The position numbers were made by a program, and so were the translations under genes. Positions 41,039-64,000 of a stretch of DNA of 64,000 nt are shown here, in pieces. Source of the DNA: a virus; IMG/VR virus record IMGVR_UViG_3300012178_000001, positions 28,495-92,494 of that record; one strand, given 5' to 3'. Under the pieces are notes generated by a model. The model saw only the letters and a program-made list of their open reading frames with translations, was not told the DNA's origin and ran no database searches. Position 1 is the first letter of the stretch. Every line of letters starts with the position of its first letter.

Positions 41039-41202
41039 TTAACCACTTGTATCAATCCATATATCACTGGTTGATGGTGATGATGAAGATACTGCTGTTT
41101 TAGGTTGATTTCCTGCGTGCCAAACGGTATTGCCATTAATTTTATAAGATGCATACGAAGTCCAATATGCTAACGAGTTATATATTTCACTGTTGTATAT
41201 AT
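41039..41202 (-). pseudogene. Remnant of a tail-fibre C-terminal module
   Basis: The minus strand encodes about 54 residues ending NTVWHAGNQ, then SSPSTSDIWIDTSG and a stop. The last part is the cap shared by the fibre proteins ending at 44339, 45455, 46823 and 50944. The frame is closed upstream by a TGA near 41203. A Shine-Dalgarno (GGAGG) and an ATG lie just upstream in another frame that stops after six codons. It looks like the 3' end of a fibre gene left after deletion and frameshift. A short functional cap from a non-ATG start cannot be excluded. Confidence 0.6.
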
Positions 41203-41225
41203 ATCATAGTTAACCTCCAACTATT

Positions 41226-41954
41226 TTATAGACTTATTTCATTTATTTCACCGTTTACATATGTTATTCCATCAGAACCCTCTATTACTTTCTCTGAACT
41301 TTCTGGATTTGTCATTTCATAATTAATCTTTACCTCTTCGCTACTTAATGATCTGTTGTATATTCTAATATCCTGTATTTTTCCATTAAACCAGTCACCT
41401 GACCTCGAGTAGTTAGTTCCGATATTTAAGCTATATGGATTAACAATACCAGTAATAGAATGATGACTAGTATCTTCAGCACCATTCACGTAAATACTAG
41501 TAGAACTTCCATTGTATGTTATTACTACATTGTTCCAACTATTAAGGTTATAAGTTAGTACTGTTGATAAGTACCCTGATGACTTAACCGTTGTATCAGT
41601 ATAGAATTCCAATCTACTTGATGATTGTAAAGCTAGTATAAATCTGTTACTACCATTAGCCCAGAATATCCTTTCACCGTCTACACCAGATGTAGGGTAA
41701 AACCATATAGATACTGATTGTTGCGGACTAGTTTGTGTAACTGGTATACTAATGTAACTATCTACACCATTAAAACTATATGCTTTTTGACCTAGACCAC
41801 TAGTAATTGTTGCACCGCTATTTGTGCCATCATTATCACTACCAGAATAATCAATGATATCACCATCTAGTTTCCACCAACCTATGAGACCGAATGTTAC
41901 TCCAACTTCAGAGATTGAGTTATTATTTATTATACCATTCTCATATATATCCAT
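41226..41954 (-). CDS. LamG-domain fibre protein, detached C-terminal module
   Basis: A 242-aa LamG/concanavalin-like lectin domain: GLIGWWKLDG (~22-31), NSGATITSGLGQKAYSFNGVDSY (~44-67), WNNVVITYNG and DIRIYNRSLSSEEV. It then has the short tail SSEKVIEGSDGITYVNGEINEISL. The same module is the C-terminus of the proteins at 47437-50724 and 56165-59575. Here it is a separate gene, starting by TGATG overlap with the upstream LamG gene. The domain binds carbohydrate in other proteins; here probably the host surface. Confidence 0.75.
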   Translation of the reverse strand: MDIYENGIINNNSISEVGVTFGLIGWWKLDGDIIDYSGSDNDGTNSGATITSGLGQKAYSFNGVDSYISIPVTQTSPQQSVSIWFYPTSGVDGERIFWANGSNRFILALQSSSRLEFYTDTTVKSSGYLSTVLTYNLNSWNNVVITYNGSSTSIYVNGAEDTSHHSITGIVNPYSLNIGTNYSRSGDWFNGKIQDIRIYNRSLSSEEVKINYEMTNPESSEKVIEGSDGITYVNGEINEISL

Positions 41955-44314
41955 CAGACCTCAACTCCCCATAGTATTTCCTCAACCATGTCTTCAGAGC
42001 CAGTCCAACATATGAATTGACATCTAGTTGCATCCCGTCCTGAACTAGTTCTATTATAACTTATGACGTGTCTTGCACCCCAACCAAACATTAAGTTGTC
42101 AGAGGGTTCTCCAAAGTCATCTGACGGACTAGCAAATCCTATACTAGTTGAACTTATAGCAAGTATATCAGTTTTTCCATAGTAAATATCATCAATATAC
42201 ATCTTTACTTGACCATTAAGTTTTTCACCATTAGTACCTGTTAATATATCCTCCATAGTCACACCATTTGGTAATACTAATTTAACAGTGCAAGGCATTA
42301 TAAATTCACCATCTATACCGTCTGCGTGTGGATATACATAATTGGTCGGGTTACCATTTGAATCATATAGATTAATTTGCTTTACCCAAGTTACACTATC
42401 CATTTTAATAGCCGAATTATATATATTCATATCTTTATGAGATGCAAATACTCCTGACTCACTATAGGGTATTACTTTATTACTAGTAGTTGTAGCATGT
42501 AAACTATCATCTGACATATTTGTACCAAATAAATCATATTGTGGACCACCAAATTGCTTCCATGCTAATTTAATTATATTACTACTAGTGATTGCATGTG
42601 CATTTAGATTACCATTAGTGTCCATATTAACTTTTTCAGTGTATATATCCATTATATCATCATCTGATAGATTTGATGAATACATTTGGACTTCATAAAT
42701 TGTTCCATCAAACCACCTAGACTCAGGATAATATGTTCCTAGTTTATCAAATATTAAGCTATCTAATTGTGTATCTGCAGTTATAGTGTTCTCAAGTATT
42801 CCATTTATATAAAGTTTATATACACCATTTCCGTCATAGGTATATGTAAGCATATATTTTACACCATTTTGAAGTACTGTAGTTCCTGTGTACCAACCTC
42901 TCTCTGGTATATCTTGATGTATCCAAATTCCTATTTTTTGTTCATATATACTTAACCAATTAGTATTAGAATCATAACTTCCAGAGGACATTATAGAGCG
43001 TATGTCTGATATATCTGATGGTTTTATCCATTCTATTACACTCCAAGAAGTATTAGATAACATTATTGTTTTATCTGATTTTATTAGATTATCTACTCCA
43101 TTAAATTCATAATCACCTATCCCAACAGTATTTGAACCATTCCATTTTGGTGTTGTTGAAGGTACAATATATGAATTATTCCCCTGACCACTGCAGTCAC
43201 TTATAACTCCATAGTCTCTTATATCTTCTATAAACTCTGTTGCATGATCCTTTTCTTCAAGTTGTATTTTTGTTACTTTAATATCAATACTATCAATATT
43301 AGAGTAGTAGTCTCCAGTTAATATATCTAATCTCAGTTTATCACTTGTGCCAGAATAGACTGCAGTTACTTCGCATCTAATATATCCACCAGTACCATCC
43401 AATATTACATAACTTTGTGGTTGTTCTGGTGCTGTTCCACCGTCAAACATCACTAGTCTTAGTGATGCAGTACCTACTACGTTATTCTTAAAGTATGCAG
43501 ATAATGTAATGGGTTGATTTGCTGGTGTTGTACGAACTAGATTTTGATAAATGTAATAATAACTACCCGTATCAGGAACAGTCACTATTCCATGATTATA
43601 TTTAATTGAGAAACTCCCAGTCCCATTTGTAGAGAGACTCCAATCAGATGTGTCTTCAAATAATGGATTGAATATTAGGTTCTGAGTTGGTTCTACAAAG
43701 TCATCGAATTTATAGTGTAATACTTTTGCTTTAGATAATTCCTTAACTTCTCTTTCACTTAGTGCGTGGTCATATATTTTTACATCATCCACTATAGCAT
43801 CAACATAATTAATTGTATATCCCTTACCTATTGTTATATTACTACTAGATACTGAACCTATACATGTGCTATTTGCTCCTTCACTTAAATCCTTCTCACC
43901 ATTAATATACCATTGTCTACTACCATCATCATATTTTACAATACACGAGTGATACCATTGTCCTACACTTAAATCACTAGAATTTATGCTGACATACGGA
44001 GATGCATTACCGTTGCCACCACCGCAGTAGAATCTTAAATGCCCAGGGGTTTCCAAGTTTATAGTAAACTCACCACCATATGCTTTATCTATTACAGTAC
44101 ATCTATTAGTAAGACCATTTATATAGATCCAAAATGATATAGACAATTCACCAACTATTTGTAAGTCTTCATGGTTTGGTACAGTAATATATCCATCCGA
44201 CCTACCAGTTCCCAGCTTACTATTTGAGTATACTGTAGATGTTTCCACCCCATGATGCTTTAATAAACTATCTTCTGCATTTCCATCTAATTTATAATGT
44301 GCTACTAAACTCAT
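41954..44314 (-). CDS. LamG-domain tail-fibre protein
   Basis: A 786-aa protein with an N-terminal LamG domain (MSLVAHYKLDGNAEDSLLKH at 1-20; closing with KIYDHALSEREVKELS at ~175-190), the linker KAKVLHYKFDDFVEP, a second carbohydrate-binding-like region (~205-360), a second LamG domain (~375-555, with GQGNNS and YKLYINGILEN) and a C-terminal domain. It is about 300 residues shorter than its relatives at 47437 and 56165 because their last LamG module is a separate, overlapping gene here. It likely binds surface glycans. Confidence 0.75.
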   Translation of the reverse strand: MSLVAHYKLDGNAEDSLLKHHGVETSTVYSNSKLGTGRSDGYITVPNHEDLQIVGELSISFWIYINGLTNRCTVIDKAYGGEFTINLETPGHLRFYCGGGNGNASPYVSINSSDLSVGQWYHSCIVKYDDGSRQWYINGEKDLSEGANSTCIGSVSSSNITIGKGYTINYVDAIVDDVKIYDHALSEREVKELSKAKVLHYKFDDFVEPTQNLIFNPLFEDTSDWSLSTNGTGSFSIKYNHGIVTVPDTGSYYYIYQNLVRTTPANQPITLSAYFKNNVVGTASLRLVMFDGGTAPEQPQSYVILDGTGGYIRCEVTAVYSGTSDKLRLDILTGDYYSNIDSIDIKVTKIQLEEKDHATEFIEDIRDYGVISDCSGQGNNSYIVPSTTPKWNGSNTVGIGDYEFNGVDNLIKSDKTIMLSNTSWSVIEWIKPSDISDIRSIMSSGSYDSNTNWLSIYEQKIGIWIHQDIPERGWYTGTTVLQNGVKYMLTYTYDGNGVYKLYINGILENTITADTQLDSLIFDKLGTYYPESRWFDGTIYEVQMYSSNLSDDDIMDIYTEKVNMDTNGNLNAHAITSSNIIKLAWKQFGGPQYDLFGTNMSDDSLHATTTSNKVIPYSESGVFASHKDMNIYNSAIKMDSVTWVKQINLYDSNGNPTNYVYPHADGIDGEFIMPCTVKLVLPNGVTMEDILTGTNGEKLNGQVKMYIDDIYYGKTDILAISSTSIGFASPSDDFGEPSDNLMFGWGARHVISYNRTSSGRDATRCQFICWTGSEDMVEEILWGVEV

Positions 44315-44338
44315 TCTAGCCCCCTAAAATACTATATA

Positions 44339-45433
44339 TTAACCGCTTGTATCTATCCATATATCATTAGTTGCTGGTGATGAAGGTGCTGATGATGCAA
44401 CAGTAATCTTATATCCATTGACTTCATTATGTGAATGACTAGCATTAGCAAATGCACTTGCATGCTCTCCGTCTAAAGTATCTACATCTAATTTTTTACC
44501 AGATACTGTACTCTTTACTGAGTCTGACCCGTATGATGTGGCATATGAAATATTCAATGGATTATCCCATTCAGCATTATCATCACCATTGTAACCTATA
44601 ATTAACTCCCTAACTGATATTACACTATAATCATATTGACCTGTATTAGTAACGTCACCAATATATATTACGCCATAATTAGATGGATCTCTAGCAAATC
44701 TAACTGTATCATTTGGTTTCATAGAACTAGTTGATTTAAAATATGCAAACGTGTTAATCCAAGTAGGAGATGCATATAAATAACCACCTAATGTAACAGT
44801 GAAACTTGTGTGGGTAGTATATTCATAGACATCGACTACCATACGCATCATAGAGTATGAAGACAATTTAGCTGGCAGTTTTATTCTTATAGCACCATTA
44901 TTATTACTTACTGGATTATTGTATGTTCCACCTTTCGGGTTTATAAGTTTTCTAACTCCACCTACACGATTCCTAATATTCATATTACTCATATCATTAA
45001 CTGTTAGATCTCCTGTCACTGTTCCCCCACTTGTTGGTAAGTAACTATGTGAGTGACTAGCATTAGCAAATGCACTAGCATGTTCTCCATCTATGGTGTC
45101 AACATCCAAACTATTACCAGAACCTTCGTTACCAACTGTTAACACACTTTTATTATTTACTCTAACATCCCCACCGTCATAGTTTAAATCTAATACACTA
45201 TACGAACCATTATTTATAGTCTTTATGTCTGAACCATTTAGTCTTATATTCGCAGAGTTCGTTGGTCCTATCTGTAGGGGATGTTCAGTTGTGGTATTAC
45301 CCACGCCCTGACTACTTGTAGTTTTTATAGTTCCACTTACACTCAAGGAGTTTATAACTTCTATATCTCTTGCACTAAGTAATCCTGTAACTTTTAGTAT
45401 TCCATATGTTAAAGTGCTTCCTAGGCTTGCCAT
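44339..45433 (-). CDS. Tail-fibre protein with cap module (twin 1)
   Basis: A 364-aa protein. Order: a conserved N-terminal attachment segment (MASLGSTLTYGILKVTGLL), a repeat VDTIDGEHASAFANASHSH (~115-133), a unique receptor-like middle (~150-300; GVRKLINPKGGTYNN), a second VDTLDGEHASAFANASHSH (~320-338) and the C-terminal cap SSAPSSPATNDIWIDTSG. The adjacent upstream gene encodes a second 364-aa protein of the same design. The ATG follows AGGAGGG. Confidence 0.75.
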   Translation of the reverse strand: MASLGSTLTYGILKVTGLLSARDIEVINSLSVSGTIKTTSSQGVGNTTTEHPLQIGPTNSANIRLNGSDIKTINNGSYSVLDLNYDGGDVRVNNKSVLTVGNEGSGNSLDVDTIDGEHASAFANASHSHSYLPTSGGTVTGDLTVNDMSNMNIRNRVGGVRKLINPKGGTYNNPVSNNNGAIRIKLPAKLSSYSMMRMVVDVYEYTTHTSFTVTLGGYLYASPTWINTFAYFKSTSSMKPNDTVRFARDPSNYGVIYIGDVTNTGQYDYSVISVRELIIGYNGDDNAEWDNPLNISYATSYGSDSVKSTVSGKKLDVDTLDGEHASAFANASHSHNEVNGYKITVASSAPSSPATNDIWIDTSG

Positions 45434-45454: not shown

Positions 45455-46549
45455 TTAACCACCAGTATCTACCCATATGTCATTTGTTGATGGACTTGAT
45501 GGAGCCGATGTTCCTACTGTAACTTTAATACCATTTACCTCAGTATGTGAATGACTAGCATTAGCAAATGCACTAGCATGTTCTCCATCCAGAGTATCAG
45601 CATCTAATTTTTTTCCAGTTATAGTCCCCTTTATAGCATCTGTACCATATGATGTTGCATATGATATATTTAATGCATTATCCCATTGTGCGTTATCATC
45701 ACCACTATGACCTATAATTAATTCTCTTACAGATATTACACTATAATCATATTGACCTGTAGCTCCTACATCACCAATGTATATAACACCATATCCCGCT
45801 GTATCAATTGCGAATCTAACTGCAGGAGTTACTTGCATAGAACTAGTTGATTCAAAGTATGCAAATTCATTAACCCAATTAAATGATGAGTATAAATACC
45901 CACCTAACGAAACAGTGAAACTAGACCCACCAGCGTAATCATATACATCAACTATCATACGTAACATAGAGCTATAATTCTCATGACCTGGTAAGTTTAT
46001 CTTTATAGCCCCGTTTATATTACTTGATGTTAGGTTATAAGTACCGCCCTTAGGATTTAGAATCTTTCTAACTCCATTTTCCCATGTTCTTATATGTACA
46101 TCACTCATCCCATTAACTGTTAAATCATTTGTTACAGTTCCTCCACTTAGTGGCACATAACTATGTGAATGACTAGCATTAGCAAATGCACTAGCATGTT
46201 CTCCATCTACAGTGTCTGCATCAATTCCATTACCTGAACCTTCATCACCAGTAGTGAGTATCCTTTGGTTGTTTGCTCTAACTTCCCCACCATTATAATT
46301 TAAATGTAATATACTATAAGCACCGTTATTTATTGCCTTTATATCAGAGCCAGTTATTCTTAAGTTAGCACCAGTTGTTGGTCCTATTTGTAAAGGATGT
46401 TCTGTTGATATATTATCTGCGGCTTGACCACTTATAATATTTATAGAACCACCTAACTTTAAGGAATTTACTACTTCCATATCCTTAGATTTTACCAATC
46501 CTGTAATTTTTAGTATCCCATAAACTATTGAACTTCCAAGAGATCCCAT
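45455..46549 (-). CDS. Tail-fibre protein with cap module (twin 2)
   Basis: A 364-aa paralogue of the protein encoded at 44339-45433, collinear over its full length with no length difference. Both keep STEHPLQIGP/TTEHPLQIGP, two DGEHASAFANASHSH repeats, a middle with YDYSVISVRELIIG and the cap SAPSSPSTNDIWVDTGG. Divergence is spread along the gene but strongest in the middle domain, as expected for receptor-binding specialisation after tandem duplication. Confidence 0.75.
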   Translation of the reverse strand: MGSLGSSIVYGILKITGLVKSKDMEVVNSLKLGGSINIISGQAADNISTEHPLQIGPTTGANLRITGSDIKAINNGAYSILHLNYNGGEVRANNQRILTTGDEGSGNGIDADTVDGEHASAFANASHSHSYVPLSGGTVTNDLTVNGMSDVHIRTWENGVRKILNPKGGTYNLTSSNINGAIKINLPGHENYSSMLRMIVDVYDYAGGSSFTVSLGGYLYSSFNWVNEFAYFESTSSMQVTPAVRFAIDTAGYGVIYIGDVGATGQYDYSVISVRELIIGHSGDDNAQWDNALNISYATSYGTDAIKGTITGKKLDADTLDGEHASAFANASHSHTEVNGIKVTVGTSAPSSPSTNDIWVDTGG

Positions 46550-46804
46550 TATAAATTCACCTCATCTATTTGTCCTTTTATAAATACCTGTTTATCCTTA
46601 TTCTGTATTATTTGTTCGTTAGAATTAGGGTCTGTCATCTTATAATTAATAGTTATTTCTTCTTCTGATAGTGCTCTCATCAAATTTGTAACACTTTCAT
46701 AGTTTCCCATCAGCAACAGTTGGTGAGCCATCAACTATCCCATGATGCTTTAATAAACTATCCTCCACATTTCCATCTAATTTATAATGTGCTATTAATC
46801 TCAT
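46549..46804 (-). pseudogene. Decayed LamG fibre gene (internal deletion)
   Basis: The minus strand begins ATG at 46804 with MRLIAHYKLDGNVEDSLLKH, the start of a LamG fibre protein, and reaches a stop after about 36 codons. A second frame then continues as RALSEEEITINYKMTDPN to QIDEVNL, the end of a LamG fibre protein, stopping at 46549. About 85 codons remain of a protein whose relatives have ~800-1100. The 5' part is nearly identical in DNA to 44254-44314, so the loss looks recent. Confidence 0.8.
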
Positions 46805-46822
46805 AATATAGACTCATATATA

Positions 46823-47437
46823 TTAACCACTTGTATCTATCCATATATCATTAGTTGAAGGTGATGATGGTGCTGTTGTCCCTACTGTAAGGTGATGTCC
46901 ATCTATTTTATCGCTATCAGCCGCCGAGTCGGAATATCGTGCCCTATCGACTCTAACCCCATAAGTACCTGATCCATTATACCCCATAAGAGTAGGATAA
47001 CTAGCTTTCCAACTAGTGTTTGGATTTGTTTTATCACAGGTTGCTCCAGTTGGCGTTGTACCTGCGGATGCATCAAAAATAGTATGGTTATTATTATAGT
47101 TTCTCCATGCTAATTGACCAACCACAATGTCGTCACCATTATTAGTATACCAATTTGTTCTGTTAGATAGGTGATACCCATCTAATTTATCGCTATCAGC
47201 TGCCTTTCCAGATGTAGTTAGGTATGTACTATGACTATGACTAGAAACAGCAAACGCACTCGCATGTTCCCCGTCAACTGTATCAGCATCAATTCCCTTA
47301 CCAGATCCCTCATCTGCAGTAGTTAGTACGTTATTTCCACCCACTGTCAAACTTTCTTCTATCTCCATTGCTTTAGCCTTTATTAATCTTGTCACTCTTA
47401 GTAGTCCATATACTATACTACTTCCAAAGTTAGACAT
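46823..47437 (-). CDS. Short tail-fibre protein with cap module
   Basis: A 204-aa relative of the 364-aa twins. It shares the N-terminal segment (MSNFGSSIVYGLLRVTRLI), one VDGEHASAFAVSSHSH repeat (~58-73) and the cap TTAPSSPSTNDIWIDTSG, but has a different, shorter middle containing two DSDKLDGYHL/DSDKIDGHHL repeats. The start overlaps the upstream LamG gene's stop. Confidence 0.72.
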   Translation of the reverse strand: MSNFGSSIVYGLLRVTRLIKAKAMEIEESLTVGGNNVLTTADEGSGKGIDADTVDGEHASAFAVSSHSHSTYLTTSGKAADSDKLDGYHLSNRTNWYTNNGDDIVVGQLAWRNYNNNHTIFDASAGTTPTGATCDKTNPNTSWKASYPTLMGYNGSGTYGVRVDRARYSDSAADSDKIDGHHLTVGTTAPSSPSTNDIWIDTSG

Positions 47438-50400
47438 TAAATATTCACCTCGCTTAATTCACCTTTAATGTAGAGAATGTTATTATCTTGTATTACTTTT
47501 TCTCCATTATTTGGATTAGTTATTCTATAATTAATTGAAATTTCTTTCTCTGATAGTACTCTATCATATATTCTAAAATCTTGTACTTTACCATTAAAGC
47601 TTTTAGCATATGGATATGATGCTCCTCCTGTAGATCTACCAATTGAACTAAAGCTAAAATATTCAGTATCTGGATTTGCCCCTCTTGACATATAACCAGT
47701 ATGAAATAGATTACCATTTTGATACCATCTTACAGGTCTCTCTGATTCGTTATTAGCAAATACTATCGTAAAGTGACTCCATACTCCTTTAACATCATCT
47801 GGGAATGCTCCTGAACCAAAAGTATAACCATTCTGTAGAGCCGCCTCAGTTCTAAAGTTCTTACCGTCACTGTATATTTCTATATGTCTTATAGTACTAC
47901 TCCCTCTAAATAATGACATTCTGTCAACTGCATTAGCATCTACCTTTATCCATATACTATAAGTACAACCACTTGGATAATTACTCGTACTAGTATTTGT
48001 TATTAATTCAGGGATTAGTATATTACCACCATATACTGTTCCATCACTAGTTCCACTCCCATCTAAATCATATGCTTGCTGTCCTAATCCACTTGTGATA
48101 GTAGCACCATCATTTGTTCCATCATTATTACCAAGAGAATAGTCATCAGTATTTCCGTCTAATTTCCACCAACCTACAAGACCATTTGTTATTCCAACCT
48201 CACTATATCCGTTACTATAATTCACACCAGATGATTTTAGCTCAATTATATTAAGTTCACCAGAAGATATAGGTCTATGTTCTCCACAACCTATGATTGC
48301 TTCAATAGGTAATTCATTTCCATTTACTACTTCAAACCTCGGTCTATAATGCTTAACATATGTTCCATCCCCAATTTCACCATACTCATACATTGGATAC
48401 TGTCTTACATATACAGATGAAGCATTACTCATCCAATTAAAGTTTCTACCTACATTAAAGTAGGTTCCATCAGTATAGTAACCTTTACCGCTAGTTGGAT
48501 TACCAGTTGTTCCATATGGGTATATAAAGAACTCCCATAATACCCATTTACCTAAGTAATTTGTATCACCCATTGATGGGGCAGTAAAATATGGATTTGT
48601 ATTAGCAGTTGTTGTGTTTACGTTACAGACACTGTCTGACATACCAACATAATTTCTTTGATTACTAGATGAGCTTGGCTCTTCGTGACAGTATATCCAC
48701 TGTGTAAATCTATATGTTCTATTTGGATTTATTGTAAATCTATAATATGTTGTTGGGTGAGCATATTGTTGATAATGTAATGAGTTCGATTCAAATTTTA
48801 TCATAGTATCAACTTCGTCGATAGGGTTTATGAAATCATCTATAATATTAGTATAATTTGAATTTGCATTTATATCCATGCTTCCAGAGAGCATAGGATG
48901 TGTAAAGGATTTACTTGCTGTATAACTTCCTTTCTCCCATACCTCATATCTTATTAGATTATTATATTCATCAATACCACTTTCATCGAAAGTTTGTGCA
49001 TTAAAGTCTCCTGATATATCTATATTAAGTCTTTGTTTATATAAATCATTAATATCATCTTGGGATAAAACAGTTGCATATATCCTTATGTCCTGTATGC
49101 ATGCCATAACCCCATAGTTGGCATAATCACGAGCTATTCTACCAATTGATATCCCTGTATCTATATTTGCAGATACATTACCATCCCTTATTGTATTTAA
49201 GGTTGCTTTATTTCCATTAATATAAATATCTAATGATGTTGACTTGAATTGCCCCTCATCTCTTTTTACCCATACTATATGAGTCCATTCATTTAATGGT
49301 ATAATTTCTGAAGTATAGTATGTAGTACTTCCCCATTCATCAAAACCTACCCTATCTGTGGCATAACTTTGATAAGATGATATAGCATTATTCCTACTCC
49401 CTATCCCCCATAGTCCTGCGGCTTGCCAAGTGCCAGTTCTTTTAAACCATCCAGAAACAGTGAAAATAGGATTCGTTCCAATATTAAAGTCAGGATTAGA
49501 TATATTTTCATTATCAGATTCAAAATTATAAGCACCATTTCCAATCTTACTATCCTCAGTCCATTCTGGTGTAGTTGCTAAATTCACTACCCCATCATTA
49601 CCTTGTCCACTATTATCGTTTATAATTCCATAATCTCTCGTTCCCACTACAAACTCAGTAGAGTAATCTTTAGTTTCAAATTGTATTTTCTTTACATATG
49701 ATGTTCCTGCATCAATAGTACTAGGCATGTGATAAAATGATACAATCACATCTGTCGAGGGATTTCCATCACCTAATAAATAACTATCATCCCTTGTTAG
49801 GGTTCTTTCATATTTCTCATAATCCAATGATGTACTACTTATCTGTGTGCTAGCACCCCAACTATCGCCAGGATTTCGGGTGTAAATATACATAGTAACT
49901 CGTCCACCAGCATCTTTTCTAACTTTATCTATTTTCATTAGAGCACTTAAAGTTACACTTTCTCCGTCAGCAACTCCTAATTCACTCCATGTCCATGATT
50001 GAGATAAAAATCCATATCCTGTACCTGAATAAGCATAACCATCTTCTCTTGGACTACTCATCCAATTCTTAGTAGGCTCTACAAATTCATCAAATTTATA
50101 ATGCAATACCTTAGCCCTAGACAATTCTTTTACTTCTCTTTCAGTTAATGTATGGTCATAAATTCTAACATCATTAAGTTGTCCATAAAACTCATAATTA
50201 TTAAGGTAAGAGCCTGCCCATTGTCCAATTAATATTGGATAATCTGTAAAATATGGAGTCTTACTTAATATTATTGAATTATCCAGTATTCCATTTATAT
50301 ATACTTTCATATTATTACTATTATAATTATAAGTGAAAGCTACATGTGACCATTCATTTAAAGGTGTTGTACCAATAGAATTTATTCCATAACTCCGTGT

Positions 50401-54728: not shown

Positions 54729-56165
54729 TTATCCGTTAAAAAATCCTAAACTACCGTCTGCATTTTCTTTTATAGTCCAACTACCAGTACCAAATCCACC
54801 GTCAGCACTCAATTTACCAGTAGTTGATTCATCCCCCGTATTATTTAAAAATCTACCATCTGCTTCGGTTTCTGTATAGTATTGAGAGTTATGTGTGTGA
54901 CTATCATTAGCCACCGTTACAGTCAATGTACCACCTGCTAAATCAGTCAATGTAAGACTACCTGATGCATCTCCACCTAATGTTATAGTTGGATCTGGTT
55001 TATTAGTTGCATTATTCCAATCTCTATAATAAGAACCATGTTGACCGTCTAATAAATCACTATCATCTGCAGTAGCATTAATTCCCAAGTACTCAGTATC
55101 ATGATTATGTGCTGTTGAACTTTTACCATTTAATGCAGTCTGTAAACCATCAACATTAGCAATCGTATGATTATGACTATCATCCGCAACAGTTGCAGTT
55201 AATGTACCACTTGCTAGATTAGTTAATGTTATATTACCTGACAAGTCACCACCTAAGGTTATAGTTGGGTCGGGTTTATTAGTAGCATTATTCCAGTCTA
55301 AATAATGAGAACCATGTTGCCCGTCTAGTAGATCAGCATCTAGTCCACTAGCAGAACCATCAACATTCTTTAATCCAGTAAGTATATCACTGTCTGCCAT
55401 TGTTGCATTATCTATATTAGTTTGCAATGTGTTTAGTTCAGTCTGTAGACCGTCAATATTACCAATAATATGATTATGACTATCATCAGATACCGTAGCA
55501 GTTAATGTACCACCTGCTAGGTTTGTTAATGTTATATTACCTGACAAGTCCCCACCCAATGTTATAGTTGGATCTGGTTTATTAGTTGCATACGTCCAGT
55601 CTCTATAGTAAGAACCATGTTGACCGTCTAATAAGTCAGCATCTAATCCACTAGTAGAACCATCAACATTCTTTAATCCATTCAATATGTCACTATCTGC
55701 CATTGTTGCATTATCTATATTGGTCTGCAATGTATTTAACTCTGTTTGTAAACCATCAACATTACTTATAATATGATTATGGCTATCATCCCCTACAACG
55801 CCAGTTATAGTTACATTACTAGTACCATCAAATGATACACTACCAGATATATCACCGTCTAATGATATAGTCCTAGCAGTATTTAATCTAGTAGCAGATA
55901 CAGCATTATCATTAGCTCCTAAGAATGCACTAGCATGCTGACCGTCTAATAAGTCAGCATCTAATCCACTACCAGAACCATCTACTTTTTTTACTTCCGT
56001 TAATATAGCATTTGAACCTATTTGTGATGCAGTTACAGAATGTGGATTATCTACTCTCTCAGGATGATTTTTTATATAATCTTCAAGATTATTTATACCA
56101 CCAAGTTTTAATCTACCCGTAACAATTAGCTCACCATATGTTATCGTTGATCCTAATTTTGCCAT
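54729..56165 (-). CDS. Repeat-built tail-fibre protein
   Basis: A 478-aa protein of tandem units. Each unit has a LDGQH core (SGLDADLLDGQHASAF, SGLDADLLDGQHGSYY, SGLDADLLDGQHGSHY, DDSDLLDGQHGSYY), then NKPDPTITLGGDLSG, an LTNLAGGTLTATV strand and DDSHNHI. Three to four copies lie at ~75-440, with near-identical DNA between copies. The N-terminus (MAKLGSTITYGELIVTG) matches the attachment segment of the capped fibres; the C-terminus (FGTGSWTIKENADGSLGFFNG) is a different tip. Probably a trimeric shaft. Confidence 0.75.
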   Translation of the reverse strand: MAKLGSTITYGELIVTGRLKLGGINNLEDYIKNHPERVDNPHSVTASQIGSNAILTEVKKVDGSGSGLDADLLDGQHASAFLGANDNAVSATRLNTARTISLDGDISGSVSFDGTSNVTITGVVGDDSHNHIISNVDGLQTELNTLQTNIDNATMADSDILNGLKNVDGSTSGLDADLLDGQHGSYYRDWTYATNKPDPTITLGGDLSGNITLTNLAGGTLTATVSDDSHNHIIGNIDGLQTELNTLQTNIDNATMADSDILTGLKNVDGSASGLDADLLDGQHGSHYLDWNNATNKPDPTITLGGDLSGNITLTNLASGTLTATVADDSHNHTIANVDGLQTALNGKSSTAHNHDTEYLGINATADDSDLLDGQHGSYYRDWNNATNKPDPTITLGGDASGSLTLTDLAGGTLTVTVANDSHTHNSQYYTETEADGRFLNNTGDESTTGKLSADGGFGTGSWTIKENADGSLGFFNG

Positions 56166-59100
56166 TATATATTCACCTCACTTAATTCGCCTTTAGTATA
56201 GACTTGTCCGTCTAATGTCTCAATGTAGTTATCATTAGAATCTTTTCTACCTAAATCATAATTTATCTTTACTTCATTATCTGTTAATGCTCTATTGTAT
56301 ATTCTAACATCTTGAAATGAACCATCCCAATTATACGAATCACCGCTCACAGTTCCCGCTCCAACTAATAAATTTGAATTTAATGGGGGTGAATATGATG
56401 TTGTATTACCTGAAATAATATTACCATCCCATATTCCAAAACAGTTAACTCCATCAAATACTTGCCCCACCATATGCCAGTTAGTATCATTCCAATCTAT
56501 AGTGCAGTCTCTATATTCATTTTCACAATGAACTCTAAGCATATCATTTCTCGCCCATAGACCTGGATTCCATGTTGTACCTGAACCGAGAATTAAGTTA
56601 TTTCTACCTGTCCCTATTAGTGTATTTGCTCTAACCCAAAATATAATAGTGTACTGCTCGCTTGGATTTGGAGTAAATGGTAAAGTTATACTATCATTGC
56701 TTCCATCGAAGTAATAAGCCTTTTGACCTAACCCGCTAGTAATAGTTGCACCATTATTTATACCATCATTTCCCTTTCCACTATAATCTAGTGTATCTCC
56801 ATCTAGTTTCCAGTAACCTACTAATCCATCTGTTACACCTATTTCATTAGATGCTTCTGTTCCCTTAATTCCATTAGGGGTTAATACGTTTTCCCCGTAT
56901 ACAAATCCGTCTAATAACATTGGATCTTCTCTATAATCTTTAGTAAATGGGGTAGGATAATTCCTTTCCTCTAGTTGTATTGCACACCAGCTTAATTCTA
57001 CTGGAAGGTTGTCATCTGTATACATTATACTTCGAATATAATAGTCTCCATGATCTGTACTATTTGTTGTAAAAGTATAACTATATCTAGACCACTCAGT
57101 TGTAATAGTTTGTCCACTCATTGTTATATAATAATTGTCACTCAATCTATTTAAGGATATCCAATATTCATTAACCAACAATTCTCTACTTGCTTTTGAA
57201 TATACACTAATTGTATATGTTGTATTCGACTTTATATAGATGGGTCCATTTTCATTTTTATATGAACCACCTGAACCACCAACCGTTTTTATCATTTTTC
57301 TATAAGGCATGTTCATGTAGCCACCACTCTCTAAGTAAGTGACCTCAGCATAGTCTCCACCCCAATTAAAAGTAGAATAGACATTTCCATATATTTTATC
57401 TGAATAAAGAGGATGCTTCACTAAATTAACTGCAAATTCTACATTTTCTACTAATGTATGTGAGTTATAATTACCCTCACTATCCATAGTGGCTATCTGT
57501 TGGTACATTGAAGATATATCGTCTTGAGATAATGCACTTGTGTATAACCTAGTATCTGTCTGAGTACCATTACCATACTCACTAGAATGATTTTGTATTC
57601 TAAATTTAGTTTCTTCGATTAGTCTAGGTGTTGTAATACTACTATCAGTATTAACTAATACACCATTTATATATATTTTAATAGAATTCCCATCATACAC
57701 ATACGCTATAAATACCCAATCACCTATAACTAAAGGATTATTAACATCTACACTCTGAGTTCTAAATGAATTACCTGCATAAAAATATGGGTACCCAGAT
57801 TGATCTATCTTACATGAAAAATCTTCTTGAAGTATTGCTGAAAAGAAATGTGTGTAATCACTAAATGAAGATGGCTTATACCATGTTACTAATGAAAAAT
57901 CATTGTACCCTAACTTTATAGTATCCTTAGTCTCTATAAAGCTACTTGAGCCATCAAAATAATATGAACCACTTCCAAATAATGTATCATTGGTCCACTC
58001 AGGTGTAGTATCTATATTAACTATACCATCATTTCCTTGACCGCTACAATCACTTATAATTCCGTAATCTCTAATGCCATTTACGAATGGAGTTGCATGG
58101 TCTTTTACCTCTAATTGAATATCACTAACTTTAAAGTATGAACCTATTCGCTCAGGTGAATCAGCACTTGTAATATATAAATGTATAAATGTTATAGACT
58201 CACTAGTGTTATTAGTGTAAGTCCAACTAATTTTACTCATAGATTCCCTTGTTGCATATCCTGAACCAACTGAGATAGTAGTATTTGTATCATCAGTACT
58301 ACCATATATATGAAGCCTTATACCACCAGATTTAATTTCAGTTGACTGTTCATGTAAGAAACACGATAGTGTCACTTTCTCTCCAACACCCACGGATACA
58401 GTTTTATTAAGATTTACATCACTACTTGATAAGGTTATATTATTATCACCAGATGCAATTCTTTCAACTCGAACAGCGTTATCGCTATCTAGACCTTCGC
58501 CCTCTAGTAATGTATATGATGTCCCAGCAAACGAATCACCAAAGCCAGATGGACGCCAATTAGTTAGTGTTGTCAGTGGGTTAGTTAATAGGTTCTCAGT
58601 AGGCTCTACAAAGTTATCAAACTTATAATGTAATATCTTAGCTTTAGATAACTCATTTATCTCATCAGAGGATATCATACTATCATATATTCTAACATCT
58701 TCTAATTTACCATTAAAGAGTTGTGAAGGTGCCAGACCCCCATCATACTCTTGACCTAATGTGAATGTGTCATCTATATTCACAGTAGTTAAATTACCCT
58801 CAACTAAATTAGTTTGTCTTCCGTCCACATATTGATAAATTCTGTTATTATCTATATCAACATTTATAGAAATATGATGCCATTCTCCATCATTATATAA
58901 TGATGGTGTAGTAACATGACCCAGTGTGCCAGTATACAAATCTATTTTCCCATTAAGAATGCCAAATAATAAAGAGTTACCACCACTTGCAGTATTAAAC
59001 GATACTGTATGTAGAGATAATGCCGTAGTAAAATTAATCCAATAACTTATGCCAAAGCTTCTACCAAATACTCTTTTAGATATATCATTAGCTATAATGT

Positions 59101-59575
59101 AATCATCAACACCATCGAATTTTATACATCTGTCTAATTTACCATCTTCCGTAACTGGATTACCTACTGCTTTACCATCGATATTAGATATATCATCTTT
59201 GACATACTTAGTATTAGAATAAAGAGTCACATTATAAATGTGACCCCAATCCGCACTACCCGTATTATGGTAAATTTCAACCTTATTCATATAGTCGTCT
59301 AACATCTCTGGTGGTACTTTCCATTCATTAGTTTCTGTTACACCATTTGTTCCACTAACTGCATCAACTAATAGTACACCATTTATCTTTATATCTATTG
59401 CATTCTCTAGGTCATTCTGATTTATGCTTAAATACGTATCATCTTTACATACATTAGGTACACCTGAAAATTTAAATTCAAATGATTGCCCTGATGTAAT
59501 AATATACCAATCTCCGTCATACGACTCATTGAATTCCTCTACTGAATTTAATCTATATCTTGCTATCATACTCAT
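56165..59575 (-). CDS. Three-module LamG tail-fibre protein
   Basis: A 1136-aa protein. An extra N-terminal beta domain (~1-105; YNVTLYSNTKYV) precedes LamG 1 (~125-305), linker KAKILHYKFDNFVEP, carbohydrate-binding-like region (~325-490), LamG 2 (~500-680; GQGNDGIVN, SIKIYINGVLVN), a second binding-like region (~700-880) and LamG 3 (~905-1110; GLVGYWKLDG, GATITSGLGQKAY, DVRIYNRALTDNEV), ending KGELSEVNI. Same design as 47437-50724. Start overlap and close spacing indicate one transcript with its neighbours. Confidence 0.77.
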   Translation of the reverse strand: MSMIARYRLNSVEEFNESYDGDWYIITSGQSFEFKFSGVPNVCKDDTYLSINQNDLENAIDIKINGVLLVDAVSGTNGVTETNEWKVPPEMLDDYMNKVEIYHNTGSADWGHIYNVTLYSNTKYVKDDISNIDGKAVGNPVTEDGKLDRCIKFDGVDDYIIANDISKRVFGRSFGISYWINFTTALSLHTVSFNTASGGNSLLFGILNGKIDLYTGTLGHVTTPSLYNDGEWHHISINVDIDNNRIYQYVDGRQTNLVEGNLTTVNIDDTFTLGQEYDGGLAPSQLFNGKLEDVRIYDSMISSDEINELSKAKILHYKFDNFVEPTENLLTNPLTTLTNWRPSGFGDSFAGTSYTLLEGEGLDSDNAVRVERIASGDNNITLSSSDVNLNKTVSVGVGEKVTLSCFLHEQSTEIKSGGIRLHIYGSTDDTNTTISVGSGYATRESMSKISWTYTNNTSESITFIHLYITSADSPERIGSYFKVSDIQLEVKDHATPFVNGIRDYGIISDCSGQGNDGIVNIDTTPEWTNDTLFGSGSYYFDGSSSFIETKDTIKLGYNDFSLVTWYKPSSFSDYTHFFSAILQEDFSCKIDQSGYPYFYAGNSFRTQSVDVNNPLVIGDWVFIAYVYDGNSIKIYINGVLVNTDSSITTPRLIEETKFRIQNHSSEYGNGTQTDTRLYTSALSQDDISSMYQQIATMDSEGNYNSHTLVENVEFAVNLVKHPLYSDKIYGNVYSTFNWGGDYAEVTYLESGGYMNMPYRKMIKTVGGSGGSYKNENGPIYIKSNTTYTISVYSKASRELLVNEYWISLNRLSDNYYITMSGQTITTEWSRYSYTFTTNSTDHGDYYIRSIMYTDDNLPVELSWCAIQLEERNYPTPFTKDYREDPMLLDGFVYGENVLTPNGIKGTEASNEIGVTDGLVGYWKLDGDTLDYSGKGNDGINNGATITSGLGQKAYYFDGSNDSITLPFTPNPSEQYTIIFWVRANTLIGTGRNNLILGSGTTWNPGLWARNDMLRVHCENEYRDCTIDWNDTNWHMVGQVFDGVNCFGIWDGNIISGNTTSYSPPLNSNLLVGAGTVSGDSYNWDGSFQDVRIYNRALTDNEVKINYDLGRKDSNDNYIETLDGQVYTKGELSEVNI

Positions 59576-59587: not shown

Positions 59588-62494
59588 CTACCCCAAATAT
59601 TTAAATCTAAGTGTATCAGTTGCACTATCATCAACCATTCTATAGTTACCTACATTATAACCATTATTTGCTACCATAGTTCCGTTTACTGTAACATTCT
59701 GTTCAGTAACTATATCTGTATCAGTTCTTATAAAGTTACTTGCATGTAAACCATCTAGTAAATCTGCATTAACTCCACTTCCAATACCATCAACAGACTT
59801 AAGTTTATTTAATACATCACTTGCAGTGTAAATACTACTATTAAGCTTAGCATCTAATGATGATTGTAAATTATCTATATTACCTATAGTATGATTGTGA
59901 CTATCATCACTAACTGTTGCACTTAATGTCACATTAGAAGAACCATCAAATGATATTGAACCTGATAAATCTCCACCTAATGATATAGTTCTAGCAGTAT
60001 TTAATTTAGATGCACTAACTGCGTTACTATTAGAGTCTAACTTACCGTCTAATGCAGTTTGTAAGCCGTCAACGTTACCTATGATATGGTTATGACTATC
60101 ATCAGCAACTGTAGCTGTCAATGTTCCATTACCTAAATCAGTTAATGTAACACTACCACTTAAATCTCCACCTAAAGTAATTGTTGGATCTGGTTTATTA
60201 TTAATATTAGTCCAGTCTATATTTATATTAGCCCAATCAGCATCTGCTTGAATTACCCAACTAGTTCCATCATGAATATATGAATCTCCTGTATCCTTTT
60301 CATATATCTTATCCCCTTCAGAACCAGTAGGTCTAGTATCTGTACTATTTATAACAAATGTATCAGGATTACCTAAATCTGGTATTAGTGATAAAGGTAT
60401 TTTTGCACTATCATCTAATCCAGCATATCCATTAGCTATATTTTTATTTGTATTTAGTTCAAATACTGAAGCATGATTTCCATCTAAGTAATCAGCATCT
60501 AGCCCACTACCTGTGCCATCAACAGTTTTAATTTTAGATAATACATCACTTGCAGTATATACAGATGAATTCAATTTACTATCTAATGCATTTTGTAAAC
60601 CATCAACATTACTTATAATGTGATTATGACTATCATCATTTACAGTTATTGTATAAGTACCACCTGTAAGGTTAGTCATTGTTATACTACCAGTTACATC
60701 ACCGTCTAAAGTAAGTGTTGGATCTGGTTTATTAGTTGTATTAGTCCAATCTAAATAATATGCACTATTGTTATTATCTAATAACGTACTATTATCTGCA
60801 GTTGCATTTATACCCAAGAACTTATTATCTGATTCTATCTCTGTATAATATCTAGTATCATGTATATGACTATCATCGGCAACTGTTACATCAAAAGTTA
60901 TATTTTCACTACCGTCAATATTAATAGAACTACTTATATCACTAGTAACACTTCCAGACACATCACCAGTTAAGTTTATATTTATTGGTGACTCTAGTTT
61001 AGTAGTAGTTGCAGAATTACCTGTGATACTAGAACTTATAGTATTTGGTAAATATACATCACTAATTGTTCCACTATTTATATTAGTAGCATTAAGATAA
61101 TAACTTGGTAAATTATTACCTAGTAAATCACTATTATCTGAGGTTGCATTTATACCTAGAAACCTACTATCTGATTCAGTTTCAGTGTAGTATCTCGTAT
61201 CATGTGTATGACTATCATCAGCAACTGTTATATCTAAAGTTACATCTTCATCACCATCTATATAGTTCATTCCACTAATATCACCTGATAATACACCTGA
61301 TACATCTCCAGTGAGAGTTATAGCAAAAGGTGTCTCTAGTTTAGTAGTAGTTGCAGAGTTTCCAGTAATATCAGATGTTATACTACTTGGTAAATGGTCA
61401 TTACTAATTGTTCCACTATTTATATTTGTTGCGTCAAGATAATAACTCGGTAAATTATTACCTAATAGCTCACTATCCGTTGCAGTTGCACTTAAACCCA
61501 GAAATCTATTATCAGATTCGGTTTCTGTATAGTATCTCGTATCATGTGTATGACTATCATTTAAAATATTTATGTCTAAAGTTACATTTTCACTACCGTC
61601 AATGATATTTAATCCACTAGTGTCACCAGTTATACTTCCCGTAACATCTCCACCTAAATTTAGATTAAATCCATTTTCTAATTTAGTAGTAGTTGCAGAG
61701 TTACCAGTAATATCAGAAGTTATAGTATCTGGTAAGTGGGTATCAGGTATTGTACCACTATTTATATTAGTAGCATTAGTATAGAATGAACCTTCTTCTC
61801 CGTCTAATAAATCACTATCTATACCGCTACCTACTCCATCTACAATTTTCAGTTTACCTAGTATATTTGATGGAGAATTTACTTCACTTATTGATTGCAC
61901 TAGATTAGCCTTATTAGTTGTATTTAGGTTAGTTAGTGTTCCTATATTACTAGTATTTGAATCCACATCAGAACTTAAAGTGGTGAAATTGTTATTCTGT
62001 AATAAGTTTAAACTTAATGTTACAGTTCCATCACCGTTTTCCAAATAATTTATATCATTAGCTACTGGTAGATATGTATTTCTTATGGTTTCTTTTATTT
62101 GTTCTTCAGTGTTATGAATATCTGTATTATTTTTATGTGTATCGTATTCATTATGAATTTCATTTATTGAGCTTGTTATATCTGTTGCTACAGTATTTAA
62201 CTCCATATTACCTATTTTAATATCATTATCCTCAATGGATGATGCATTTGTGTTAATTTTAGTCATGTTAGTAGATATATCATCATTATTACCAGTGATT
62301 TCTAATAAGTTAGATGCAATATTATCTTTATTAATATTTATCTCTGTTAAGTTATTAGATATATCCGTATCATTACTATTTATAGAATTTAAGTTACTAG
62401 TTATTAAGTCTGTAACATCAACCTTAAAATCTTGGTGTCCTAACAATTCAAGTATCAAATCCGAAAGATCTATTTGTTCAGCTTTTAATGGCAT
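59588..62494 (-). CDS. Long repeat tail-fibre protein, first gene of the array
   Basis: A 968-aa protein. Residues ~20-130 are heptad-like (NLTEININKDNIASNLLEIT), a probable trimeric coiled coil. Then come four units of ~105 residues (~290-650) built as SATTTKLE, L-x-GDVSG, NYIDG-D-E-D-V-T-L-D, VADDSHTHDTRYYTETES and LLGNNLPSYYLNATNINSGTI. Later there are units with NKPDP, TGSGLDADYLDGNHASVF and GSGVNADLLDGLHASNF. The C-terminus (GTMVANNGYNVGNYRMVDDS) is a distinct tip. It heads the minus-strand fibre unit behind a terminator and promoter-like box. The ATG follows GAAAGGGG. Confidence 0.75.
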   Translation of the reverse strand: MPLKAEQIDLSDLILELLGHQDFKVDVTDLITSNLNSINSNDTDISNNLTEININKDNIASNLLEITGNNDDISTNMTKINTNASSIEDNDIKIGNMELNTVATDITSSINEIHNEYDTHKNNTDIHNTEEQIKETIRNTYLPVANDINYLENGDGTVTLSLNLLQNNNFTTLSSDVDSNTSNIGTLTNLNTTNKANLVQSISEVNSPSNILGKLKIVDGVGSGIDSDLLDGEEGSFYTNATNINSGTIPDTHLPDTITSDITGNSATTTKLENGFNLNLGGDVTGSITGDTSGLNIIDGSENVTLDINILNDSHTHDTRYYTETESDNRFLGLSATATDSELLGNNLPSYYLDATNINSGTISNDHLPSSITSDITGNSATTTKLETPFAITLTGDVSGVLSGDISGMNYIDGDEDVTLDITVADDSHTHDTRYYTETESDSRFLGINATSDNSDLLGNNLPSYYLNATNINSGTISDVYLPNTISSSITGNSATTTKLESPININLTGDVSGSVTSDISSSINIDGSENITFDVTVADDSHIHDTRYYTEIESDNKFLGINATADNSTLLDNNNSAYYLDWTNTTNKPDPTLTLDGDVTGSITMTNLTGGTYTITVNDDSHNHIISNVDGLQNALDSKLNSSVYTASDVLSKIKTVDGTGSGLDADYLDGNHASVFELNTNKNIANGYAGLDDSAKIPLSLIPDLGNPDTFVINSTDTRPTGSEGDKIYEKDTGDSYIHDGTSWVIQADADWANINIDWTNINNKPDPTITLGGDLSGSVTLTDLGNGTLTATVADDSHNHIIGNVDGLQTALDGKLDSNSNAVSASKLNTARTISLGGDLSGSISFDGSSNVTLSATVSDDSHNHTIGNIDNLQSSLDAKLNSSIYTASDVLNKLKSVDGIGSGVNADLLDGLHASNFIRTDTDIVTEQNVTVNGTMVANNGYNVGNYRMVDDSATDTLRFKYLG

Positions 62495-62524: not shown

Positions 62525-62536
62525 TAATAAATTGTT
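62525..62536 (-). promoter_or_regulatory. AACA-N6-TW promoter-like box (minus)
   Basis: Minus strand AACA-ATTTAT-TA(A), identical to the box before the holin candidate, 31 nt upstream of the ATG at 62494 and just after a terminator. Confidence 0.58.
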
Positions 62537-62550
62537 AGAATAGATAGAAA

Positions 62551-62584: not shown

Positions 62585-62614
62585 TATAAGTTGTTATTCA
62601 TAGTATACTGTATT

Positions 62615-62722
62615 CTATAGTTGCGGTAACGTATCCGTCCTGTATTGCACACCGCTGTCTATAACAATTCTGGGGTTAGCCGGGCCAGTGGTGTCTAGTT
62701 CTAAGTTAAAATAATTTGCCAT
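62615..62722 (-). pseudogene. Truncated tail-protein start (35 codons)
   Basis: ATG at 62722, behind GGAG, encodes MANYFNLELDTTGPANPRIV and stops after 35 codons. The opening (MANYFNL-x-LDTT-x-PANP) is familiar from long Ig-like tail proteins of other phages, which suggests this is the retained start of a larger gene. The DNA is clearly richer in G+C than its neighbours. It could also be translated as a short peptide. Confidence 0.45.
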
Positions 62723-62741
62723 AATTTATCAACTCCTTTTC

Positions 62742-62891
62742 CTATTTATCAGAGAATGCACTCTTAATTTCTTCAATATCGCTGGAGGTTAGTTTAGGAT
62801 ACATAGCTAAAACCTCCCCTAAACTTTTACCAGTGGCATTGATTTTTCTATTTATTGTTCTAACTAGTATATTTAATTTATATTGAACCAT
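62742..62891 (-). CDS. Small hypothetical protein (49 aa)
   Basis: A helical 49-aa protein (NRKINATGKSLGEVLAMYPK; SSDIEEIKSAF). It overlaps the 3' end of the upstream gene by 14 nt in another frame. Small proteins with an R-x-I-x-x-G-x-x-x-x-E-V/I-L-x-x-Y-x-x-L-T pattern are common beside tail-fibre genes in Gram-positive phages. Function unknown. Confidence 0.6.
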   Translation of the reverse strand: MVQYKLNILVRTINRKINATGKSLGEVLAMYPKLTSSDIEEIKSAFSDK

Positions 62892-63216: not shown

Positions 63217-63924
63217 TTATATTAATTCACCATCTGGATTTATACCGCCTGTTACAAATTGAATTAAAATCGCTAATTCATTCAGGGCCCCTTGCTCCCA
63301 CGATTTAATGTCCGTCCCCCCAGCCCCAATAAGAATAACCCCCTGGCTTCTTACTACGATTAAAAGGGACTCGGTAATAGCATGTAACCAGGTACCTTCA
63401 AACGAATCACTAATATTCCCGAGGCTTGTACCCGCTCCGTTATAAATTGAAAGAAATGGTTGTGAATAATAAGTAGTATATACTACGTCTATTCCATAGT
63501 GATACGCACCAATGCGTGCACTATTGGGTGCTATAGGTGTTGCTATAGCTAATTGTGTCCCGTTATAGTCATATACTCTGTAATCCAGAGTATCGCTATT
63601 AAGAGCGCACCCCGAAAGCCATTCCTCTGAGAAGCATATTTTTCGTGCAGAGGCTCCACCAGCTCGTGCGATAATAGTCTGTTGGAGGGTTCCAGTTGGT
63701 GTATAGCTGGATATTTTATCGCCTTTAGTTGTCCAAACTAAACCGTCTGACCTACGATACCCACTAAACCAGTCAAACCCATCACGCTCTTCAAAATTAT
63801 TAAACGTAGACAAAGTTGACTGGGCTGGAGCCCCTCCACCGCCCACATCCGCCCATTGTGTTCCGTCCCACACTTTCTGTGCTGGGACAACCCATTCTGA
63901 ACCATTCCAATATTTTTGTGCCAT
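63217..63924 (-). CDS. Fibre-like protein of atypical base composition
   Basis: A 235-aa protein. The N-terminus has two short repeats (KYWNGSEWV and KVWDGTQWA), a pattern of phage/prophage tail tips, followed by a Gly-rich linker (VGGGGAPAQ). The rest is beta-rich with short bladed repeats (DGLVWTTKGDKISSY; LDYRVYDYNGTQLA; PFLSIYNGAGTSLG), suggesting a small propeller-like fold. The G+C content is visibly higher than elsewhere in the window and Cys/Ala/Gly use differs. The ATG follows AAGGAGG. It probably came from another phage or prophage. Confidence 0.68.
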   Translation of the reverse strand: MAQKYWNGSEWVVPAQKVWDGTQWADVGGGGAPAQSTLSTFNNFEERDGFDWFSGYRRSDGLVWTTKGDKISSYTPTGTLQQTIIARAGGASARKICFSEEWLSGCALNSDTLDYRVYDYNGTQLAIATPIAPNSARIGAYHYGIDVVYTTYYSQPFLSIYNGAGTSLGNISDSFEGTWLHAITESLLIVVRSQGVILIGAGGTDIKSWEQGALNELAILIQFVTGGINPDGELI

Positions 63925-63938
63925 AATATCAATCCTCC

Positions 63939-64000
63939 TTAATCACCACTTATATCTATCCATATATCATTTGTTGCTGGTCCACTTGGTGCTGTTGTAG
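63939..64000 (-). CDS. Partial tail-fibre protein, C-terminal cap only
   Basis: The minus strand at the right edge encodes TTAPSGPATNDIWIDISGD and a stop at 63939-63941. This is another copy of the C-terminal cap of the fibre proteins. The rest of the gene lies beyond the window. Confidence 0.7.
   Translation of the reverse strand, partial: TTAPSGPATNDIWIDISGD

What the first reader, a model, noticed from the sequence alone, without database searches (positions are those of the whole stretch)
41039..64000. Tail-fibre array with a shared C-terminal cap and interchangeable modules
At least nine intact fibre-type genes plus remnants lie head-to-tail. Six loci end in the same cap (A/T-PS-x-P-x-TNDIWIDxSG): 41039, 44339, 45455, 46823, 50944 and 63939. 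Five carry (L/V)DGxH repeats; three start with the same segment (GS-x-x-YG-x-L-x-V-TG-L). Three loci share LamG modules with the same linker HYKFD-FVEP. Conserved ends with variable middles suggest a recombination-driven system for changing receptor specificity.
Basis: seen in the sequence. Interest (0 to 1): 0.65.

Follow-up and report, generated by a model that had tools for sequence, protein, structure and literature searches.

The report
Duplicated tail-fibre cassettes in jumbo phage
A giant bacterial virus carries a 21-kb operon of about eleven related tail-fibre genes, built by old duplications of a fibre cassette also found in unrelated phages; it probably lets the virus recognise varied hosts, and it looks like ordinary slow gene duplication and exchange rather than a dedicated switching system.

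Summary
Six caps, three LamG linkers, four shared N-termini and 13 DGxH motifs all lie in 41-64 kb; none lies elsewhere in the window, and all but DGxH (0.8 expected) are absent from random sequence. The record is a 92-kb fragment of a divergent AR9/PBS1-type jumbo phage. The array is a late operon bounded by an AR9-type promoter and a hairpin. It repeats a cassette: fibre, then LamG protein, then fibre with a GxxxYGxLxVTG start. The same order and ends occur in Vibrio KVP40-like long-tail-fibre loci and other phages, and that Vibrio locus is a published recombination hotspot (PMC12028318). In the window most shared ends are saturated at synonymous sites, so selection on old paralogues keeps them alike. 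Two tracts look exchanged more recently: a cap/LamG-start junction, and a 45-nt linker that brackets the knob domain in two neighbouring genes. No recombinase, reverse transcriptase or invertible repeat was found. Verdict: a mosaic, duplicated fibre locus; recombination is partly supported, a dedicated system is not.

The parts
62525..62536 (-). AR9-type late promoter match AACAATTTATTA, AACA(6N)TR, upstream of the first gene of the array operon
   Evidence: intergenic enrichment 19 against 8.7 expected, p=0.001
59588..62494 (-). 968-aa fibre with tandem repeats; C-term ...DTLRFKYLG, like the ...SLDFNYTG / SIDFIFA ends of genes that precede LamG genes elsewhere
56165..59575 (-). LamG gene 1 (1136 aa, 3 LamG_3 domains, linker HYKFDNFVEP; C-term KGELSEVNI)
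54729..56165 (-). fibre (478 aa) with start MAKLGSTITYGELIVTG and four LDGQH repeats; no cap
51925..54711 (-). 928-aa protein, weak ILEI and CBM_4_9 matches below cut-off; no phage homologue found
50944..51921 (-). fibre (325 aa), start resembles the TAIGGNIVWHGGN type of Vibrio fibres; ends in cap TNDIWIDIG
47437..50724 (-). LamG gene 2 (1095 aa, 3 LamG_3 domains)
46823..47437 (-). fibre (204 aa), shared start, cap TNDIWIDTSG
46549..46804 (-). LamG remnant: first ~33 codons joined to last ~50 codons, with a stop; its start is nearly identical to that of LamG gene 3
45455..46549 (-). fibre (364 aa) with shared start, knob domain, DGEH linkers and cap
46163..46207 (-). 45-nt linker copy (DGEHASAFANASHSH) 5' of the knob in 45455; 0 mismatches
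45545..45589 (-). 45-nt linker copy 3' of the knob in 45455; 0 mismatches
44339..45433 (-). fibre (364 aa), tandem paralogue of 45455 (69% aa, 74% nt)
45047..45091 (-). 45-nt linker copy 5' of the knob in 44339; 1 mismatch
44429..44473 (-). 45-nt linker copy 3' of the knob in 44339; 3 mismatches
44249..44383 (-). cap-end / LamG-start junction tract shared with 46739-46869; 17 of 18 synonymous codons identical in the LamG start
41954..44314 (-). LamG gene 3 (786 aa, 2 LamG_3 domains)
41226..41954 (-). separate 242-aa LamG gene corresponding to the C-terminal LamG of genes 1 and 2 (split gene)
41039..41225 (-). fibre remnant with cap TSDIWIDTSG
41001..41032 (-). hairpin at the end of the array, likely terminator
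63217..63924 (-). 235-aa gene starting MAQKYWNGSEWV, after a cap-ended fibre; same pairing in L149
63939..64000 (-). C-term of a further cap-ended fibre, cut by the record end

Best explanation
This is the long-tail-fibre operon of a divergent AR9/PBS1-type jumbo phage, made by repeated duplication and decay of one fibre cassette: proximal fibre, LamG protein, distal fibre. Gene products probably join end to end through matching termini, so the ends are held constant by selection on assembly while knob and LamG modules vary (inferred). The LamG and knob parts would contact surface glycans or proteins of the host (inferred from fold families). New combinations arise slowly, through general homologous recombination at short shared tracts at gene junctions and at the DGEH linkers that bracket the knob. 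There is no dedicated switching enzyme that we could find. Shown: operon anatomy, cassette repetition, remnants, synonymous saturation of most ends, two DNA-level homologous tracts, and sharing with unrelated phages. Inferred: receptor role, end-to-end assembly, mode of recombination.
For: Cassette order and termini match the Vibrio KVP40-like loci and L014, L015, L020 and L034 (7 of 33 LamG genes followed by the N-term motif, about 0.3 expected). LamG_3 E 1e-27 to 1e-53; tail-fibre PHROGs. The cap occurs on otherwise unrelated low-GC siphophage fibres. Internal deletion and truncated copies. Synonymous codon identity at expectation in nearly all pairs. Exceptions: junction tract 17/18 codons and linker copies 11-15 of 15 codons identical, exact repeats up to 46 nt against at most 19 in shuffles. 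Knob model pLDDT 74 with viral Foldseek hits to tail and fibre proteins. AR9, BpSp, LPJP1, S6 and phiR1-37 lack LamG_3, so the cassettes are not ancestral to the group as sampled. Published recombination hotspot at the homologous Vibrio locus (PMC12028318).
Against: No near relative is available, so no exchange was observed between genomes. Most of the array shows no recent exchange at DNA level. The knob fold match to solved structures is weak (T4 gp9, E 1e-3, TM 0.39). The single-sequence model of the whole fibre failed (pLDDT 30). No virion proteomics.
Confidence: 0.7

Rival explanations
1. Static multi-fibre apparatus: old paralogues, each with its own place in a branched or composite fibre, kept by purifying selection with no ongoing exchange.
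For: Synonymous saturation of nearly all pairs. The 44339/45455 pair is 69% aa identical at near-saturated synonymous sites, implying purifying selection. Matching gene ends suggest fixed joints.
Against: Two remnants and a split LamG gene show turnover. The junction tract and homogenised linkers stand out from the saturated background. The cap is shared with unrelated phages.
Confidence: 0.2
2. A programmed diversification system (invertible shufflon-like segments or a diversity-generating retroelement) changes receptor specificity.
For: Four near-identical 45-nt direct repeats bracket the knob in two genes.
Against: No serine or tyrosine recombinase and no reverse transcriptase in the 92-kb record. 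No significant inverted repeats across the array; all genes are on one strand. The caveat is that more than half of the genome is probably missing.
Confidence: 0.03
3. Array partly degenerate or an assembly artefact: remnants and near-repeats reflect misassembly of a metagenomic contig at repeats.
For: Metagenome-derived record ending inside the array; repeats of 38-46 nt could confuse short-read assembly.
Against: Most repeats are only ~75% identical at DNA level and easily resolved. Eleven intact reading frames with purifying-type divergence. Known termini join in the known order.
Confidence: 0.07

Closest known systems
Long-tail-fibre locus of KVP40-like Vibrio phages (Schizotequatrovirus ValKK3, D485, F86)
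   Same: Fibre ending SIDFIFA, then LamG 'virion structural protein' starting MSLIAWYPL, then distal fibre starting MAKLGPTxxYGSIDVTG; also a second fibre type TAIGGNIVWHGGN. The locus is a recombination hotspot (PMC12028318).
   Different: The window has several cassette copies with remnants, ~25% aa identity in LamG, terminal caps where the Vibrio distal fibres have a long C-terminal domain that looks like an S74-type chaperone (motif recognised from memory), and an AR9-type jumbo phage background.
AR9/PBS1/S6-type jumbo phages
   Same: Multisubunit RNAP genes, GroEL, 877-aa conserved protein (~34% to AR9), late promoter AACA(6N)TR.
   Different: AR9, BpSp, LPJP1, S6 and phiR1-37 have no LamG_3 domain at E 1e-3; Machias has two small LamG proteins.
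Low-GC siphophage contigs L149/L150 (IMG/VR)
   Same: Two neighbouring fibre genes ending in TNDIWID-type caps; in L149 followed by a MAQ..YNGSxWV gene, as at 63939-63217 here.
   Different: Rest of the fibres unrelated; no LamG cassette seen next to them on these contigs.
Host-recognition modules shared between Alteromonas phages A5 and V22
   Same: Tail-fibre modules exchanged between unrelated phages (PMC10579305, abstract read).
   Different: Different fibres and a separate chaperone; no array of paralogues described in the abstract.

Membership tests
KVP40-type long-tail-fibre cassette | order fibre -> LamG protein -> GxxxYGxLxVTG fibre on one strand | tested here: met
   window 59588->56165->54729, and partial repeats at 47437->46823, 46549->45455 (remnant), 41226->41039 (remnant)
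KVP40-type long-tail-fibre cassette | matching protein termini at the joints | tested here: met
   for other phages (7/33 next-gene N-term, 9/33 previous-gene C-term)
KVP40-type long-tail-fibre cassette | C-terminal S74-type chaperone on the distal fibre | tested here: not met
   no Peptidase_S74 in the array fibres at the E limits used; four intact genes end in the cap. The Vibrio ends were not scanned
KVP40-type long-tail-fibre cassette | T4-like (Straboviridae) core genome | tested here: not met
   core genes match AR9-type jumbo phages
AR9/PBS1-type jumbo phage | split multisubunit RNA polymerase genes | tested here: met
   phrog_2962, phrog_2987, phrog_25005
AR9/PBS1-type jumbo phage | genome above 200 kb | tested here: inconclusive
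   92,494-base linear fragment
Shufflon / invertible fibre segment | site-specific recombinase and inverted repeats | tested here: not met
   (fragment only)
Diversity-generating retroelement | reverse transcriptase with template and variable repeats | tested here: not met
   no RVT_1 (fragment only); template/variable repeats not searched separately

The most novel reading that the evidence does not exclude
The 45-nt DGEHASAFANASHSH linker is a DNA-level recombination joint, kept homogeneous by frequent exchange, through which this jumbo phage swaps knob domains between neighbouring fibre genes within a population.
Probability: 0.1. Interest if true: 0.6.

Novelty: new variant of a known kind. 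Interest (0 to 1): 0.35.

Why it matters
It shows that a fibre cassette known from T4-like Vibrio phages also occurs, multiplied, in an AR9-type jumbo phage, and that its gene ends are shared across unrelated phages. This gives concrete joints (matching termini and a bracketed knob) with which to test how phage fibres assemble and exchange modules. It also gives a caution: conserved ends with variable middles need not mean recent recombination, and a codon-level test separates the two.

Tried and rejected
Close relatives: single-protein scans of viral contigs, megablast against phages, alignment scans of viral contigs and GTDB genomes. These gave at best ~38% identity in the core protein and no near relative. 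Reverse transcriptase, serine and tyrosine recombinase: none. Structure of the whole 364-aa fibre from single sequence: uninformative. PDB sequence searches with LamG gene 2 and the fibre: nothing. The 928-aa and 235-aa proteins had no phage homologue by tblastn. sigma-70 promoter scan: no more than chance. The idea that all shared ends reflect recent gene conversion was rejected by the codon test.

Full report
What the record is. The window is bases 28495-92494 of a 92,494-base linear virus record whose right end is the window's right end. It encodes split RNA polymerase beta-type subunits, a GroEL chaperonin and AR9-type virion proteins. An 877-aa core protein is ~34% identical to AR9/PBS1 and 29-33% to Bacillus BpSp, Listeria LPJP1, Staphylococcus S6/Machias and Yersinia phiR1-37. 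It is therefore a fragment of a divergent AR9-type jumbo phage. The host is unknown. A low-GC Bacillota host is likely from GC content (30%) and relatives, but this is inference.

The observation. Counts are cap 6, linker 3, shared start 4, DGxH 13, against 0, 0, 0 and 0.8 in first-order Markov windows and none in the first 40.9 kb. Corrections: four genes share the start; the cap at 41039 is TSDIWID in a broken gene; the GSxxYG spacing should be GSxxxYG.

Anatomy (all on the minus strand). In transcription order: cap-end of a truncated fibre (63939), 63217 (235 aa, MAQKYWNGSEWV start), 62878, a hairpin at 62550-62585, an AR9-type late promoter match at 62536, 59588 (968-aa fibre), LamG gene 56165, fibre 54729, 51925 (928 aa), fibre+cap 50944, LamG gene 47437, fibre+cap 46823, LamG remnant 46549-46804, fibre+cap 45455, fibre+cap 44339, LamG gene 41954, split LamG gene 41226, fibre remnant with cap 41039, hairpin 41001-41032. 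The AR9 late promoter is AACA-(6N)-TA/G (PMC5312081). Such sites are enriched between genes here (19 against 8.7, p=0.001) and stand before the operon starts at 62494 and 40902. So 62494-41039 is most likely one late transcript.

A repeated cassette shared with other phages. LamG genes end in ...KGELSEVNI-type sequence and are followed at once by a fibre with the GxxxYGxLxVTG start, in the full copies at 56165/54729 and 47437/46823 and in the remnant 46549/45455. Upstream of the first LamG gene is a fibre ending ...DTLRFKYLG. The KVP40-like Vibrio phages ValKK3, F86 and D485 have the same order: fibre ending SIDFIFA/S, LamG protein, distal fibre MAKLGPTxxYG. Among 33 LamG relatives in viral contigs and these phages whose gene ends inside the locus, 7 are followed by that fibre start within about 400 nt (about 0.3 expected) and 9 are preceded by the SLDFxF-type end. 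The expected number uses a motif rate that includes the hits, so it is conservative. The linker KxLHYKFxxFVEPT recurs in L014 and L015. The cap recurs, as the last residues of otherwise unrelated fibres, in low-GC siphophage contigs L149/L150; in L149 the last cap-ended fibre is followed by a MAQ..YNGSxWV gene as at 63939-63217 here. Five of seven annotated jumbo phages searched (AR9, BpSp, LPJP1, S6, phiR1-37) have no LamG_3 match at all, so the cassettes look acquired in this lineage (inference).

Is it recombination? If shared ends were kept alike by recent DNA exchange, synonymous codons in them should agree. Across array pairs, codon identity at identical residues is 0.41-0.58 in nearly all large comparisons, against 0.51 expected from codon usage. 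Caps, starts and LamG linkers are not clearly different from that; a few small cap comparisons are mildly high (z about 2). So most ends are old and held by selection on the protein. Two exceptions exist. First, the junction tract 44249-44383 / 46739-46869 (cap end plus LamG start): 17 of 18 comparable codons identical in the LamG start. Second, the DGEHASAFANASHSH linker: four copies bracket the knob in 44339 and 45455, with 41-45 of 45 bases identical and loss of identity beyond the block on most sides. The longest exact repeat is 46 nt, against at most 19 in shuffles and 19 in the rest of the window. The same linker in other phages has drifted at synonymous sites. The pair 44339/45455 as a whole has slightly raised codon identity (0.61, z 3.6), as expected of the youngest duplication; but the two linkers within 45455 are identical to each other, which gene duplication alone does not explain. 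These windows are the best of 812 tested, so the evidence is suggestive rather than conclusive.

Direct signs of turnover: an internally deleted LamG gene, a split LamG gene and a truncated fibre. No reverse transcriptase, serine or tyrosine recombinase was found, and no significant inverted repeats. More than half of the genome is probably missing, so this is not proof of absence.

The variable part. Residues 139-318 of the 45455 protein, with 11 relatives, give a beta-sandwich model (pLDDT 74, pTM 0.76). Viral Foldseek hits are tail-repeat, tail and fibre proteins (best E 1e-10); the best solved structure is T4 gp9, weakly. It is probably a fibre knob. Receptor binding is inferred from such folds and from the LamG domains, not shown.

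Mechanism proposed. Products assemble end to end through matching termini, which constrains gene ends; knobs and LamG modules vary. Duplications and deletions by general homologous recombination at junctions and linkers change the set over evolutionary time. The same locus in Vibrio phages is a recombination hotspot associated with receptor-binding variation (PMC12028318), and exchange of host-recognition modules between unrelated phages is published for Alteromonas phages (PMC10579305).

Verdict. A real, well-described anatomical feature of a known kind: an expanded, mosaic long-tail-fibre locus. The variant features are the multiplied LamG/fibre cassette in an AR9-type phage, the terminal caps, and the homogenised linkers around the knob. 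The claim of a dedicated recombination system is not supported.

Noticed in passing
window 31060-32838 (-): 592-aa lysin-like protein combining a phosphodiester glycosidase (NAGPA) domain, SH3_3 repeats and Amidase_2; an unusual domain combination near the array.
   Followed up: no
window 37204-40902 (-): 1232-aa protein downstream of the array, 27% identical to gp420 of Bacillus phage G over two thirds of its length, with weaker matches in Bacillus phage vB_BboS-125 and Exiguobacterium phage vB_EalM-137; no Pfam or PHROG match.
   Followed up: partly
window 50725-50943 (-): Small coiled-coil-like reading frame (MDDKILKNKLKEVEERYTNLYKQLQQLDEE...) inserted between a cap-ended fibre and a LamG gene.
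   Followed up: no
window 62586-62877 (-): Short reading frames between 62878 and the hairpin, including a remnant-like MANYFNLELDTTGPANPRIVIDSGVQYRTDTLPQL.
   Followed up: no
L006:4969-6852 (-), record bases about 24969-26852: 627-aa HNH/homing-endonuclease-like protein (phrog_559) in the same record.
   Followed up: no
window, several intergenic gaps (2818, 8768, 17015, 29728, 33205, 35278, 40991, 62536): Recurring AACA(6N)TA sites before operon starts, matching the AR9 late promoter.
   Followed up: yes
L034 10001-15953: Three LamG genes in a row between a SLDFNYTG-ended gene and a MANLSSSTIFGDLEVTG fibre in another phage contig: another multiplied LamG cassette.
   Followed up: partly
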